Source: an uncultured Clostridia bacterium (lineage in GTDB: Bacteria > Cyanobacteriota > Vampirovibrionia > Gastranaerophilales > Gastranaerophilaceae). Taken from it: a stretch of 55,046 nt of DNA. Below, piece after piece: positions 8,722-26,180 of this stretch. The notes beneath the pieces were generated by a model. It had not been told where the DNA came from. It worked only from the letters and a program-made list of their open reading frames with translations, and ran no database searches. A program made the translations under genes and the position numbers. How positions within the stretch are numbered: the first letter of the stretch is position 1; each line of letters starts with the position of its first letter. The stretch spans positions 1 through 55,046 of the forward strand of contig CAMEWS010000005.1 of the NCBI GenBank assembly GCA_945946765.1. The letters run 5' to 3'.

Positions 8722-9645
8722 ATGATAAAATACGCAGTTAATTTAATAAAAAACACTTTTCACCCTTTACAAATACCCGAATCCGCCCATGTTGAACACG
8801 GACAGCTTGTACTTGTAAGAACAGAAAAAGGTGAAGAAGTTGCAAAAGTTTTTACAGTAAACCCATTAATAGCAAAAGCTTGGGAAGGCAAAATGCCCCC
8901 TGCTCTGCCTTTAATAAGAGTGCTGGGTCAAAGAGATTTGGAAACACTGGAAGAAATTAAAATAGCTGAAGGTGAAGCTTTTAAGACTTGTAAAGAGCTT
9001 GTTGCACAACACAATCTGCAAATGAATCTTGTGCAAACAAAATACACTTTTGACAGAAGAAAAATCACTTTTTATTACACAGCGCCCGAGCGTGTAGACT
9101 TTAGAGGGTTATTAAAAGACCTTACCCAAACTTTTAAAAGAGTAAGAATCGACCTTCGACATATTGGGGTAAGAGATGAAACTTCACTTTTAGAAGGCAA
9201 CGGCTTGTGCGGAAGACCTTTTTGCTGCTGCACTTTTTTAAGAAAATTTGATTCAATAAACATTAAACTGGCAAAAGACCAAGGAATGCCGATTACTCCG
9301 GGGAAAATCTCGGGCACGTGCGGAAGACTTTTATGCTGTTTAAATTACGAGTACAAAAACTATATTGATGCAGCAAAAGACATGCCGCCCATAGGCTCAG
9401 GCGTAATGACTCCTGACGGTCTTGGCAGAGTTTGTTCTCTCAATTTCTTAAGTAATGAAATTTCCGTTAAAACAGAAGACGGAAAAATCAAAAACTTCAA
9501 AAAAGAAGAAATTGAAATGGTTGACGGGGATGTTAATATTGATATAGATATTCAAGATGCAACCGCATACCAAGAACAACCCGAATACAATGTCGACATA
9601 AAACAACTTGAAGACGATAGAAACAGCTCTACGGGAAATGTATAA
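8722..9645 (+). CDS. ricT: PSP1 domain protein, RicT/YaaT family
   Basis: The 307-aa protein has the PSP1 C-terminal domain (about residues 60-230) with its cysteine signature: C163 and C168-C170 in GLCGRPFCCC, then C200, C205 and C206 in GTCGRLLCCLNYE. In Bacillus subtilis RicT (YaaT) forms the Y-complex with RicA and RicF, binds iron-sulfur clusters and directs RNase Y-dependent mRNA maturation. The cysteines are complete here, so cluster binding is plausible. RicA and RicF partners are not in the window. The acidic tail (about 265-307) is low complexity. It is followed 51 nt later by the FlhA-C-like gene, so the two may share a transcript. Confidence 0.85.
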   Translation: MIKYAVNLIKNTFHPLQIPESAHVEHGQLVLVRTEKGEEVAKVFTVNPLIAKAWEGKMPPALPLIRVLGQRDLETLEEIKIAEGEAFKTCKELVAQHNLQMNLVQTKYTFDRRKITFYYTAPERVDFRGLLKDLTQTFKRVRIDLRHIGVRDETSLLEGNGLCGRPFCCCTFLRKFDSINIKLAKDQGMPITPGKISGTCGRLLCCLNYEYKNYIDAAKDMPPIGSGVMTPDGLGRVCSLNFLSNEISVKTEDGKIKNFKKEEIEMVDGDVNIDIDIQDATAYQEQPEYNVDIKQLEDDRNSSTGNV

Positions 9646-9696: not shown

Positions 9697-11160
9697 ATGA
9701 AATCAACTAAAATGCAATATTGTATTAAAGCTGTACCGAGTGATGACACGTTTCAAATGGAATCTTTACTCAATGAAATGTCCTCTTTAGGCTGGGAACT
9801 GTACACAATGCACGAAGTCGAAGCTGATGAAGGATATAATTACAACTGTATTTTTGTCAAAGAATGTGACAACATTCCCGATACCGAAGAAGATGATGAC
9901 GAAAACCTTTTCGGCTATCGTTCTCAAATGCAAAAAATGATTTCCTCACAAAACGAACCTTATGAACTATGTATAGAAATTCAAAACAAAATCAGAGAAA
10001 AAAGAAAAAAAATTAATAACATTAAATCATTGATTGACGAAACAAACGAAACTCAACGTCAAGAACTTAACAATGAAATGTATAGAACCATTGAAGAATT
10101 GAAGGAATTAAAAAAACAACTTCAAGCTACTATTTCACCTGAAATAATGCTTGATAAAATCGGCGAAGATAAAATAAAAATACGTCTTAGCGAAGAAAAC
10201 ATAGAGCTTGTTAATCCCGACACAGATGCACAGCTTGTTGCGGAAACCGTCAGGGTAAGACAAAACCTTGTTGACGAACTCGGATATGTCATTCCAAAAA
10301 TCAGGTTTGAAAACGATGAAACATTGCAGGCAAACGAATTTCAAATTGATGTAAGGGGAGTTTGTGCGGCAAAAGGCTGTGTATTTAACGGCTACTATAT
10401 GTTTTTTAAAGATGATTTGAACATAGACAAACCGACAAAAGACATGATTAAAGACAACGACCCTATCACAGGCAAAGTTGTATACTGGATTCCGTCTGAA
10501 AAAACAAAAGATTTTTGGGCGGAGGGGTATGATTCTTCACAGGTTATTGCACGTATTTTAGAATACATTTGTATTAAAAACGTGGATGAAATTTTTGATT
10601 ACAACGACATAAACAATTACATTGAAATTGTAAGCGAAAATAACATGTATCTTATAGAAAATATTATTCCGGATTTTGTTTCCGTTGCAGAATTAAAATA
10701 CATATTAACAAGCCTTATAAAAGAACGGGTTTCAATAAAAGACATTGTTTATATCTTTGAAAAAATAAACGATTTTGCTGACGAAGAAACAAAAGAAGAC
10801 CTTTTAAGCAGAGTAAGACATTCGCTTTCTCGCCAAATATCCAAAGGCATTGCGGATGAAAACAATCTTATACGGGCATTTGAATTATCCGAAGAATCCG
10901 TAAAATACCTCTTGGGAAAAGTTTCCGGCAAAAATACCGTTATACGTATTGATAACAACAAGATAAAAGCAATTGTAAATAACATTTATGCATCAATTGA
11001 CCAACAAAAAATCAATGCGGATGAAATAGTTGTTATAGTACCTATGGAAATTCGTCAGGTTACAAGTGTTGTTCTTTCTCAACACATGCCAAGCGTAAAA
11101 GTTGTGGCACGTGAAGAAATTGCAAACGGATATTCCATAGAAATTTACGACAGAGTTTAA
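9697..11160 (+). CDS. Soluble FlhA/SctV C-domain-like protein with DUF4177-like N-terminus
   Basis: The 487-aa protein has no signal peptide or membrane segment. Residues 6-56 look like a DUF4177 domain (MQYCIKAV, then LGWELYTM, then CIFVKE). Residues 85-145 form a charged coiled coil. Residues 150-487 resemble the cytoplasmic domain of the export-gate proteins FlhA/InvA/SctV along its whole length: VRQNLVDELGYVIPKIRF, ANEFQIDVRGV, the GYDSSQVIARILEYI helix, IIPDFVSVAELKYILTSLI with VSIKDIVYIFEKI, and the closing strand and helix from IVVIVPMEIRQV. In flagella and type III secretion this domain forms the nonameric ring that docks chaperone-substrate pairs. Here the N-terminal membrane half is absent. 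No other export gene is adjacent; the neighbour is ricT. Confidence 0.75.
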   Translation: MKSTKMQYCIKAVPSDDTFQMESLLNEMSSLGWELYTMHEVEADEGYNYNCIFVKECDNIPDTEEDDDENLFGYRSQMQKMISSQNEPYELCIEIQNKIREKRKKINNIKSLIDETNETQRQELNNEMYRTIEELKELKKQLQATISPEIMLDKIGEDKIKIRLSEENIELVNPDTDAQLVAETVRVRQNLVDELGYVIPKIRFENDETLQANEFQIDVRGVCAAKGCVFNGYYMFFKDDLNIDKPTKDMIKDNDPITGKVVYWIPSEKTKDFWAEGYDSSQVIARILEYICIKNVDEIFDYNDINNYIEIVSENNMYLIENIIPDFVSVAELKYILTSLIKERVSIKDIVYIFEKINDFADEETKEDLLSRVRHSLSRQISKGIADENNLIRAFELSEESVKYLLGKVSGKNTVIRIDNNKIKAIVNNIYASIDQQKINADEIVVIVPMEIRQVTSVVLSQHMPSVKVVAREEIANGYSIEIYDRV

Positions 11161-11176
11161 CAATACATACACAAAA

Positions 11177-11200
11177 ACAGCGGGATTTTGAACCCGCTGT
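11177..11200 (-). terminator. Intrinsic terminator for the EF-hand repeat protein
   Basis: Stem ACAGCGGG/CCCGCTGT of 8 bp with an 8-nt loop. On the minus strand it is followed by TTTTTG, so it mainly ends the gene at 11232-12605. It lies between convergent genes and may also slow plus-strand transcripts. Confidence 0.7.
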
Positions 11201-11231: not shown

Positions 11232-12605
11232 TTATTTTTGAAGTGCATCATATTCTTCTTTGGTTAAATGTTTTTCTTCAGTTCCACCATTATCTTTATA
11301 AATGTATTGTATATAAAATATTTGACCATTGCTTTCTTTAATAATCTGCGTATCATTTTTTCCATATGTAATAGTCTGGCTCCAATCGCCGTCATCGCTG
11401 TGACCATATGTAATTATACCATTTGAAACATATCTTCTGGTATACGACGTACCTTTACTGATGTTCTTTTCATAAATCACATTACCTTGTGAATCATATT
11501 TAGTTTCTTGTGATTCACCCAATACATATTTACCATCATCGCCTGTATAATATTTAGCAAAATAGTCATAAACTTGTTTTCCATTATGGAAACGTTGTTC
11601 TGCACATAAATTTCCGTCTAAATCAAATGTTTTTGTACTTGAAACAGAACCGTCCTGACGAAGGGTAGTTAAATATTTATAATTATTCTTATAATAAGTT
11701 TCTGTTTTTATGTGTCCATCGGGATAAAACGTGTAACTCTCATTTTTATCGGATTTACCATTTTCATCAATCCTGTATACAATTGTTTGACCAAATTTGT
11801 TAGTTTCACGCACAAATTTAGAGCCATCAGTATATCTGGTTATATCGGATATAATTTCACCCTTATTATTATATTTTAATGTTGAAGTATAATTAGCTTC
11901 CTTTATTTCTACAGACCCATCTTTATGTAAAGTTGCATTTCCGTCTTGTCCTTTGTTATCAAAAGTACGACCGTCTGCTGAAACCATACCTACACCTTTC
12001 ATTGCTTTAAAGGTTTTTGATTTATCGTCCCATTGATAGTGTATTTTGGTTGCTTCATCATAATAAATACCCTGTGAATCAGATGCAAATGTTGAACGCA
12101 AACCAAGTCCTGCCGCTGAATCTTTAGCATTTCCGACAAGTTTTTTACCGCTGGCATCATAAGCCTTCATTTCTTTCGGATAAGAAGACTTGTCATACCC
12201 AACATACTTTTGAGTGCCGTTATTACCTTCCATTCGTTTTGCATAAGAACCGTCCTTGCCAACCCAAGAAACATCTTTGGCTTCCAACAATTCACCATTT
12301 GCATCGATAATAAAGTGTTTTTTAGTTTTTGGGTCATACAAAAAATTCGGATTATTGGTTGTTTGGTAACCTTTGGCTATAGCCTCCCACCTGTGATTTG
12401 TATAATTTCCTGATTTATTTGATTGAAAATCATCCATTGCTTTTTCAAGTTCTGGTTGCTCTATTACACCAGTGCCATTTGCATCATACGTGTGAATATT
12501 AATGTTTTTAAATTTAGCATTTATCGACTCTTGATATTTATCAATAGATGCCGTTGATTGTTCGGATAATTCAGGAACATTTTTACCTTGTACTTTTTCT
12601 ACCAT
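11232..12605 (-). CDS. EF-hand protein with YD/MORN-like repeats
   Basis: The 457-aa protein has one canonical EF-hand calcium loop, DANGTGVIEQPE (about residues 43-54 of this start). A long series of Tyr-, Gly- and Asp-rich strand repeats follows (YDKSSYPKEMKAYDASGK, TRYTDGSKFVRETNKFGQ, YTFYPDGHIKTETYY), resembling YwqK/MORN or RHS-type antitoxin-like beta repeats. There is no signal peptide. The start is set at 12605: the ribosome site AGAAAGG lies 9 nt upstream of this ATG but only 3 nt from the ATG at 12611. Function unknown; a calcium-responsive surface or effector protein is one guess. Confidence 0.7.
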   Translation of the reverse strand: MVEKVQGKNVPELSEQSTASIDKYQESINAKFKNINIHTYDANGTGVIEQPELEKAMDDFQSNKSGNYTNHRWEAIAKGYQTTNNPNFLYDPKTKKHFIIDANGELLEAKDVSWVGKDGSYAKRMEGNNGTQKYVGYDKSSYPKEMKAYDASGKKLVGNAKDSAAGLGLRSTFASDSQGIYYDEATKIHYQWDDKSKTFKAMKGVGMVSADGRTFDNKGQDGNATLHKDGSVEIKEANYTSTLKYNNKGEIISDITRYTDGSKFVRETNKFGQTIVYRIDENGKSDKNESYTFYPDGHIKTETYYKNNYKYLTTLRQDGSVSSTKTFDLDGNLCAEQRFHNGKQVYDYFAKYYTGDDGKYVLGESQETKYDSQGNVIYEKNISKGTSYTRRYVSNGIITYGHSDDGDWSQTITYGKNDTQIIKESNGQIFYIQYIYKDNGGTEEKHLTKEEYDALQK

Positions 12606-12757
12606 ACACATACACCTTTCTGTATTTTATAAACTTCACTTGGTGTAATTATCGGCACGTAGGGAAAAAACTTAAGACTCCTCGAGGTTCGCCACGCCAT
12701 GCTATTAGGCAGTATCGTTGGGTTTACAGGATTTGTAAATAATTATTAAGAAGGATT

Positions 12758-25505: not shown

Positions 25506-26180
25506 ATGGGCTTATCGGCATCACAAGCACGATACCTGTGCTTAACAGCCAGAAAAAACAATGTTGAATACCAAATCCAACAAATCACCCAACAAAAATT
25601 GGCGCTTGCCAACACGTTGGACAATGAAGCTCTTTTGTGGAGCAATGGAATGAATACTCAACATTTATACTACTCCGTAGGTGGTTCAGGCTCGGCTAAC
25701 GTTGATTTGCCACGACTTTCTTATCAAATTGTAACAGGCGATATGAAAGATGGTGGTTTGGGCTTAACAGTTAGAGATTCTTACGGAAGAACCGTAGTTC
25801 CCGAACTTCCTGACCCAATGCCTGAAGATAAAACTGTTGCCGATTACGCAATCGAACCATATTGCTATCAAGCTGATTATTTTGAAAATAACCTAAAAAC
25901 AGGTAACTGGTTTATTCAACAATATGACGCAAACGGGAATCTTGTCGATTTACCGCTTGATGGTGCAAACTTTGTTTATGAAGGTATTGATGAGGGTGAC
26001 TATGCCATTGCTAATGCCGAATACGAAAACAAAGTAGCAACTTTGGAAAGAATAGACAAAAGATTCGACACTCAAATCCAACAACTTTCAACGGAACAAA
26101 AAGCCATTGAAACAGAAATGGAATCTATCAAAAAAGTTATTGACAAAAATATTGAAGAAACATTTAAAACATTCGGTTAA
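25506..26180 (+). CDS. Hypothetical protein with helical ends and a strand-rich middle
   Basis: The 224-aa protein has no signal peptide or membrane segment. Residues 1-45 form an amphipathic helix (SQARYLCLTARKNNVEYQIQ), residues 55-160 are Gly/Pro/Asp-rich and strand-like, and residues 160-224 form a long charged coiled coil ending IEETFKTFG. Helical termini around a variable middle are typical of flagellar axial proteins and some type III substrates, but I see no specific family match. AAAGGAG lies upstream of the ATG. It converges with the asparaginase gene, overlapping it by 4 nt at the stops. The function is unknown; an exported filament or cap-like protein is a hypothesis. Confidence 0.6.
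   Translation: MGLSASQARYLCLTARKNNVEYQIQQITQQKLALANTLDNEALLWSNGMNTQHLYYSVGGSGSANVDLPRLSYQIVTGDMKDGGLGLTVRDSYGRTVVPELPDPMPEDKTVADYAIEPYCYQADYFENNLKTGNWFIQQYDANGNLVDLPLDGANFVYEGIDEGDYAIANAEYENKVATLERIDKRFDTQIQQLSTEQKAIETEMESIKKVIDKNIEETFKTFG

What the first reader, a model, noticed from the sequence alone, without database searches (positions are those of the whole stretch)
9697..11160. Cytosolic FlhA/SctV C-domain fused to a DUF4177-like domain
The C-terminal 340 residues follow the export-gate cytoplasmic domain from its first to its last subdomain, but the membrane half is replaced by a DUF4177-like domain and a coiled coil. A soluble export-gate ring without a gate, next to ricT and with no flagellar operon in view, is an architecture I do not know. 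It may be an exapted chaperone-docking ring.
Basis: partly seen in the sequence, partly recalled or inferred. Interest (0 to 1): 0.75.

Follow-up and report, generated by a model that had tools for sequence, protein, structure and literature searches.

The report
Gateless FlhA paralogue of gut cyanobacteria
A protein that normally forms the inner half of the gate of bacterial flagella and injection machines occurs here as a free-standing soluble protein with a new front end; nearly all sampled members of an order of non-photosynthetic gut relatives of cyanobacteria keep it alongside full-length copies of the gate protein, so it probably does a separate job for that machinery.

Summary
The ORF at 9697-11160 (487 aa) carries the complete cytosolic FlhA/SctV domain D1-D4 (Pfam FHIPEP E 3.8e-54, from profile position 307 of 657; all 50 PDB fold hits shown are FlhA/SctV C-domains). 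No membrane gate precedes it; instead there is a small Sp36/DUF4177-like domain (below both curated cut-offs) and a coiled coil.

It is neither a split gate nor a one-off. The window comes from a Gastranaerophilales MAG that also encodes two full-length FlhA proteins. Orthologues of about 490 aa occur in 144 of 146 sampled genomes of the order; none was found outside it in the genomes searched. On a tree they form one clade (100/100) on the side of the FlhA of a second, rod-bearing export system, not of flagellar FlhA. The ricT neighbour is not conserved.

D3 and the N-terminal domain are the most conserved parts; the chaperone-binding dimple is altered. Best reading: a duplicated, neofunctionalised export-gate ring domain serving type III export from the cytosol. 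Ring formation, ligand and export role are inferred, and gene context supports them only weakly. Other gate-less FlhA-C paralogues, some lacking D2 and D4, occur in the class. Rated a new variant of a known kind.

The parts
9697..11160 (+). Gate-less FlhA2-C paralogue, 487 aa
9712..9864 (+). N-terminal Sp36/DUF4177-like domain, residues 6-56, beta-alpha-beta-beta; invariant or nearly so: Y8, L24 L25 N26 M28, W33, Y36, E40, C51 I52 F53
9958..10134 (+). Two-helix coiled coil, residues 88-146, in place of the membrane domain; its second helix runs up to the FlhA linker
10135..10167 (+). FlhA linker remnant, residues 147-157 (P148 and M151 conserved as in full-length FlhA2)
10168..10404 (+). FlhA-C subdomain D1, first part, residues 158-236 (subdomain limits are my approximation)
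10405..10521 (+). FlhA-C subdomain D2, residues 237-275; altered chaperone dimple (D255, T258) and start of the family-only motif D272-F273-W274..G277
10522..10596 (+). FlhA-C subdomain D1, second part, residues 276-300
10597..10851 (+). FlhA-C subdomain D3, residues 301-385, the main ring-forming part in FlhA/SctV; most conserved region here and, apart from the short linker, in FlhA2
10852..11157 (+). FlhA-C subdomain D4, residues 386-487, least conserved subdomain
11177..11200 (+). Terminator-like hairpin in the gap to the convergent gene at 11232-12611
   Evidence: consensus match only
8722..9645 (+). Upstream neighbour ricT (PSP1 domain); neighbour only in the loci most like the window

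Best explanation
A duplicated and neofunctionalised export-gate ring domain. Shown: the gene branches from FlhA2, the export-gate protein of a second, flagellum-like type III export system; it lacks the membrane gate, has a small N-terminal domain and a coiled coil instead, and is kept by almost all sampled genomes of the order. Shown by alignment: D3 and the linker motif are kept while the chaperone dimple is changed. Inferred: the protein oligomerises through D1/D3 in the cytosol (alone, or stacked or mixed with FlhA2), with the coiled coil and N-domain capping the face where the gate would sit, and uses its altered D1-D2 cleft to bind a ligand set other than the gate ring's own. In that way it receives, sorts or hands over cargo, or times export, for the type III export machinery from the cytosol.
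For: Tree of 57 C-domains: soluble family one clade 100/100 inside the FlhA2 side (41 rows, 99/93), FlhA1 apart at 100/100. Present in 144 of 146 genomes of the order, where FliP is present in 145 of 146. All 172 matches at E<=1e-80 among 386 genomes of the phylum lie in the order. Conservation D3 0.74 and N-domain 0.69 against D4 0.53. Dimple positions (Salmonella D456/F459/T490, PMC8166844 passages; mapped): D kept at 95%; F/Y position is T in 88% (FlhA2 Y 71%, FlhA1 F 90%); T490 position is R in 60% (FlhA2 T 57%, FlhA1 T 100%). Two other gate-less paralogues carry at their N-terminus a domain homologous to a gene of the FlhA2 operon (45% identity over 159 aa, E 8e-45 for L004; E 1e-5 to 5e-10 for L155; E-values are for a six-sequence comparison), so some gate-less FlhA-C modules do connect to this system. 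In one genus (2 genomes) the gene lies directly upstream of fliJ-fliK-flgD-flgE.
Against: No conserved operon with export genes: neighbours change between lineages, and the gene is absent from the six other fliJ-fliK-flgD-flgE operons read in full. Co-occurrence is not discriminating, because nearly every genome of the order has both. That D3 is the best conserved subdomain is also true of the parent FlhA2 (0.85), so it shows retention, not a ring. The consensus agrees with FlhA2 at only 39% of D3 and 17% of D4 positions. The family evolves faster than FlhA2 (stem 1.18, tips up to 1.12, against FlhA2 tips of at most 0.28). G122 has the gene without a detected full-length FlhA, and G135 has FlhA2 without it. 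In D3 several positions differ consistently from FlhA2 (Y302, N316, K356), which could mean altered ring contacts. No oligomer or interaction evidence was obtainable.
Confidence: 0.48

Rival explanations
1. Negative regulator or decoy: the soluble copy inserts into, or competes with, the FlhA2 ring and so throttles or times export, for example before the machine is built.
For: Residues shared by the soluble family, FlhA2 and FlhA1 include R188, G196, P200 (D1) and E343, S346, E355, R374, I381 (D3); that these make ring contacts here is not shown. Mini paralogues that keep only D1 and D3 (10 frames) look like ring pieces without the docking parts.
Against: Consistent family-specific changes in D3 (Y302, N316, K356) argue against free mixing with FlhA2. 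A pure decoy would not obviously need a strongly conserved N-domain.
Confidence: 0.2
2. Exapted for a task unrelated to export, such as an RNA- or envelope-related scaffold.
For: Upstream neighbours in different lineages are ricT, nucleoside-phosphorylase-like genes behind ompH- and bamA-like genes, or a 178-aa unknown (names other than ricT from inspection). Altered dimple; faster evolution.
Against: It is confined to an order in which the parent export system is near universal; other gate-less paralogues are fused to an export-operon domain.
Confidence: 0.24
3. A split but ordinary FlhA whose membrane half is encoded elsewhere.
For: None found.
Against: Own genome has two full-length FlhA (707 and 699 aa) besides this protein; no N-terminal-only FHIPEP match in the 29 genomes searched.
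Confidence: 0.02
4. Degenerate pseudogene or assembly artefact.
For: None.
Against: Orthologue in 144 of 146 genomes and purifying selection.
Confidence: 0.01

Closest known systems
Cytoplasmic domain of flagellar FlhA (PDB 6ch1-6ch3, 3a5i, 3mix)
   Same: D1-D4 fold and order, linker motif, family-wide conserved residues; best PDB profile and fold matches
   Different: Known FlhA-C is the C-terminal part of a multi-TM gate protein; here it stands alone behind a different N-terminal domain, with an altered chaperone dimple
Cytoplasmic domain of SctV (MxiA 4a5p, CdsV 6wa6, YscV 7alw)
   Same: Same fold; the nonameric SctV ring is held mainly by SD3-SD3 and linker contacts (PMC8223533 passages), and D3 is the best conserved subdomain here
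   Different: Weaker sequence match (NCBIfam hrcV 99.6 bits, FlhA 166.1); no gate
FlhA2, full-length FlhA of the second export system in the same genomes (L002, L249)
   Same: Parent side of the tree
   Different: FlhA2 has the membrane gate, sits in an operon with fliI, fliH and fliF, and evolves slowly
Sp36 (NCBIfam NF053529) and DUF4177 (Pfam PF13783) small domains
   Same: Weak but consistent profile match of the N-domain
   Different: Below both curated cut-offs; a fusion to FlhA is not known to me (recall)
Chlamydia pneumoniae FlhA (583 aa, PMC2830194, passages)
   Same: A second FlhA-family protein beside the type III SctV
   Different: It keeps seven predicted TM segments

Membership tests
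FlhA/SctV export gate (FHIPEP family) | Cytosolic domain D1-D4 | tested here: met
FlhA/SctV export gate (FHIPEP family) | N-terminal multi-TM gate | tested here: not met
   profile match starts at 307 of 657; no clear TM segment
FlhA/SctV export gate (FHIPEP family) | Equivalog score of FlhA or SctV (NCBIfam) | tested here: not met
   166.1 of 772.1 and 99.6 of 692.25 bits
FlhA/SctV export gate (FHIPEP family) | Nonameric ring | not testable with these tools
   monomer prediction only
FlhA/SctV export gate (FHIPEP family) | Conserved gene neighbourhood with export genes | tested here: not met
   exception G007 and G013
FlhA/SctV export gate (FHIPEP family) | Canonical chaperone dimple (D, F/Y, T) | tested here: not met
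   by alignment: D kept; F/Y to T in 88%; T to R in 60%; FlhA2 itself varies at the third position (T 57%)
DUF4177 domain | Pfam gathering score | tested here: not met
   0 of 30 genomes above the cut-off
DUF4177 domain | Same fold as a DUF4177 protein | tested here: inconclusive
   beta-alpha-beta-beta prediction; no PDB fold match at E<=0.001; no profile-profile comparison made
Sp36 family | NCBIfam cut-off of 50 bits | tested here: not met
   window 19.9 bits; 42 of 44 members match at E<=0.1

The most novel reading that the evidence does not exclude
A detached, cytosolic export-gate ring: a whole bacterial order runs a type III export system with two kinds of FlhA-C ring, one under the gate and one free in the cytosol with its own dock, plus a changing cast of gate-less and pared-down FlhA-C proteins. 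Substrate reception would then be separable from the gate.
Probability: 0.3. Interest if true: 0.82.

Novelty: new variant of a known kind. Interest (0 to 1): 0.62.

Why it matters
FlhA/SctV is thought to couple cargo docking (C-domain ring) to the proton-driven gate (membrane domain) in one chain. A paralogue that is near universal in an order, keeps the ring domain and drops the gate offers a natural separation of the two functions. It also bears on an older puzzle. Gut Melainabacteria were reported with incomplete flagellar gene sets (PMC3787301, PMC4040986; passages seen). The data here suggest that much of that set belongs to a separate rod-bearing export system with its own FlhA, FliP, FlhB, FliF and FliI, and, if my reading is right, that the soluble FlhA belongs with it rather than being debris of a lost flagellum.

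Tried and rejected
Split FlhA: rejected because of two full-length FlhA in the same genome. Link to ricT: rejected as general; of the 81 loci (80 relatives and the window) the upstream neighbour is ricT in 22, a 178-aa family in 26, and two nucleoside-phosphorylase-like families in 17 and 10. Operon with fliJ-fliK-flgD-flgE: found in G007 and G013 (one genus), not in G017 of the same family (contig ends 1.3 kb downstream) nor in six other such operons read in full; kept as weak. Physical closeness to fliP (about 6-12 kb) in at least seven genomes of three genera (positions, both lists capped): in the three loci read the genes between are unrelated, so not used as evidence. DUF4177 as a firm label: rejected at the cut-off. 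Defence-system role: one weak PADLOC hit (BrxA E 0.0023, no stretch passing) dismissed. Weak Pfam TIR hit (E 0.02) dismissed, since it overlaps D1. The hat-shaped structure related to flagellar export (PMC9380563, abstract and outline only) was considered; no link was found. Sp36 literature search gave nothing relevant. Literature: searches for Gastranaerophilales or Vampirovibrio with type III secretion, Melainabacteria with FlhA or injectisome, and FlhA paralogue phrases showed no report of a soluble FlhA-C paralogue in their listings; an open-licence library only, so not proof of absence.

Full report
What is there. The ORF at 9697-11160 on the + strand encodes 487 aa. Pfam finds only FHIPEP with confidence (E 3.8e-54), covering residues 131-477 and profile positions 307-654 of 657. 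All 47 members of an alignment of relatives match FHIPEP. A profile of the family matches 23 PDB sequences at E<=0.001, best 7e-44, all of them FlhA or SctV proteins. The AlphaFold2 model (mean pLDDT 80.9, pTM 0.62) has FlhA/SctV C-domains in all 50 rows shown of the PDB fold search. Ahead of this lie a small beta-alpha-beta-beta domain (residues 6-56), a low-confidence loop, and two helices (88-113, 118-146), with no hydrophobic segment comparable to those of full-length FlhA.

The N-terminal domain. DUF4177 is a fair lead but not an established label. Single members match it at best E 0.0059 (28 of 47 at E<=1). In a scan of 30 related genomes the best E was 2.1e-4 and no match passed the Pfam cut-off; 28 of the 34 matches listed, the two strongest among them, lie in frames of this protein's size (487-506 aa). 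NCBIfam Sp36 matches 42 of 44 N-domains at E<=0.1, best 5.6e-7, also below its cut-off for the window. A fold search with the N-domain and coiled coil gave nothing at E<=0.001.

Where it comes from. Of 80 relatives fetched, many are titled Candidatus Gastranaerophilales MAGs, the closest at 87% identity among them. The window's own genome holds four FHIPEP matches: a full-length 707-aa FlhA (L001); a full-length 699-aa FlhA beside a FliI/SctN-type ATPase and a FliH-type gene (L002, L150); this protein; and a 636-aa protein (L004). The second full-length protein scores 698.6 bits for FlhA and 588.9 for SctV in NCBIfam, both under the equivalog cut-offs; I call it FlhA2 (a working name; my notes call it SctV).

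Distribution. In 146 genomes of the order the orthologue is present in 144 (E<=6.1e-87). G135 (98% complete) and G028 (83% complete) show only full-length relatives, best at 2.6e-42 and 5.9e-43. In 240 genomes of the class, 144 of the 186 with a match are in the order; 143 of these match at E<=8.4e-134 and G135 at 5.4e-67. The other 42 are outside the order, with best E between 1.4e-65 and 3.2e-43; 54 genomes had no match, 34 of them not listed. Seven of the 42 were checked with the FHIPEP profile: five hold only full-length proteins, and two (G149, G173, one family) also hold partial ones; the other 35 were not checked. In 386 genomes of the phylum 172 match at E<=1e-80, all in the order; 214 do not, 194 of them unlisted, and G135 is the one in-order genome among those listed.

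Origin. A maximum-likelihood tree of 57 C-domains puts all 21 soluble rows in one clade (100/100), on the FlhA2 side of a 100/100 split from flagellar FlhA. The five other gate-less rows fall in several places, so the gate was lost or replaced more than once. Rows with long branches (L158 above all) are placed with less certainty.

The parent system. In G007, FlhA2 lies in an operon with FliI, FliH, a 319-aa and a 187-aa protein in the usual FliG position, FliF, FliE, a lytic transglycosylase, FlgC, FlgB and two FlgF/FlgG-like proteins (FlgB and FlgC from their Flg_bb_rod matches and inspection). In the window's genome a second cluster has a SpoA protein, FliO, FliP, FliQ, a 118-aa protein and FliR (FliQ by inspection). 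FliP is found in 145 of 146 genomes and FlhB in 25 of 25. I compared 15 genomes with one FliP and 10 with two, chosen by hand. A hook-sized Flg_bb_rod frame (448-500 aa) occurs in 10 of 10 two-FliP genomes and 0 of 15 one-FliP genomes, whose longest is 300 aa. Short FlgB/FlgC-like frames (114-164 aa) occur in 15 of 15 one-FliP genomes, two of them in 11 of 15. Flagellin was not searched for. This fits a rod-bearing export system distinct from the flagellum. Earlier papers describe incomplete flagellar sets in such genomes (passages of PMC3787301, PMC4040986 and PMC5877343). The first lists two flhA genes among 13 flagellar genes shared by its four genomes; that one of them is this soluble protein is my guess, not tested.

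Anatomy against function. In FlhA/SctV the ring is held mainly by D3 and linker contacts (PMC8223533 and PMC8213127 passages), and flagellar chaperones dock at a dimple around D456, F459 and T490 (PMC8166844 passages). In the soluble family (57 sequences) mean conservation is D3 0.74, N-domain 0.69, D1 0.63-0.64, D2 0.60, D4 0.53. In 21 FlhA2-type sequences it is D3 0.85, D1 0.72-0.79, D2 0.61, D4 0.76, so D3 leads among subdomains in both and the largest drop is in D4. Linker residues P148 and M151 are shared with FlhA2. Residues R188, G196, P200 (D1), E343, S346, E355, R374, I381 (D3), R453 and E474 (D4) are shared with FlhA2 and FlhA1; which of them touch a neighbour in a ring was not established. 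In the dimple D is kept (95%; FlhA2 D 76%, FlhA1 E), the aromatic position is T (88%; FlhA2 Y 71%, FlhA1 F 90%), and the T490 position is R in 60% (FlhA2 T 57%, FlhA1 T 100%). A family-only motif D-F-W..G (272-277, W274 in every row with a letter there) lies beside it. D3 also has consistent changes from FlhA2 (Y302, N316, K356). So the scaffold is kept and the docking surface appears re-specified.

Other gate-less paralogues. L004 (636 aa) and L155 (593 aa) carry at their N-terminus a domain homologous to the FliG-position protein of the FlhA2 operon (small-database E-values), then hydrophobic segments and an FlhA-C. L158 (427 aa) has hydrophobic segments and FlhA-C. Of 18 gate-less frames in L155-L171, ten short ones (213-296 aa) keep D1 and D3 and show no match to D2 or D4 in all 10 cases; some of these ten have a hydrophobic stretch. 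In a family outside the order (G149, G173) the two gate-less forms put on the tree branch with that family's own FlhA.

Context. The upstream neighbour is ricT in the loci most like the window but differs elsewhere. In G007 and G013 the gene is directly upstream of fliJ-fliK-flgD-flgE (Pfam run on the G007 genes; G013 by likeness). Six other such operons read in full, the window genome's among them, lack it. Gene context therefore gives only weak support for an export role; the case rests on ancestry, retention and the kept scaffold.

Verdict. The feature is real, old within the order, under selection, and its architecture is new to me and was not seen in the paper searches. Its fold and ancestry are known, so I rate it a new variant of a known kind. 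Ring formation, ligand and effect on export remain to be shown.

Noticed in passing
L150, L151, L249: A second, rod-bearing flagellum-like export system with its own FlhA, FliP, FlhB, FliF, FliH and FliI appears near universal in Gastranaerophilales and may explain the 'partial flagellar gene sets' of earlier papers.
   Followed up: partly
L004:1468-3378 (-), L155:2542-4323 (-), L158:2528-3811 (-), L160:2296-3957 (-): Further gate-less FlhA-C proteins with a few hydrophobic segments; L004 and L155 carry an N-domain homologous to the FliG-position protein of the FlhA2 operon.
   Followed up: partly
L163-L171: Ten mini FlhA-C frames (213-296 aa) that keep D1 and D3 and show no match to D2 or D4.
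   Followed up: partly
L248:7889-13576, L250:5329-11020: In one genus the soluble gene directly precedes fliJ-fliK-flgD-flgE.
   Followed up: yes
L249:8871-10405 (-): Two paralogous proteins (319 and 187 aa) in the fliG position between fliF and fliH without a confident family match (FliG_C at E 0.09 only).
   Followed up: no
window 25506-26180 (+) and L257:17835-18842 (+): Two proteins with alike beginnings (MGLSA(S/T)Q...); perhaps an axial or secreted protein family, by inspection only.
   Followed up: no
G122, G135: G122 has the soluble gene but no detected full-length FlhA; G135 has FlhA2 but no soluble gene. The genomes are listed as 97% and 98% complete.
   Followed up: no
L061, L065, L072 and others (fam 2): A 178-aa protein of unknown family is the upstream neighbour of the soluble gene in 26 of 81 loci.
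   Followed up: no
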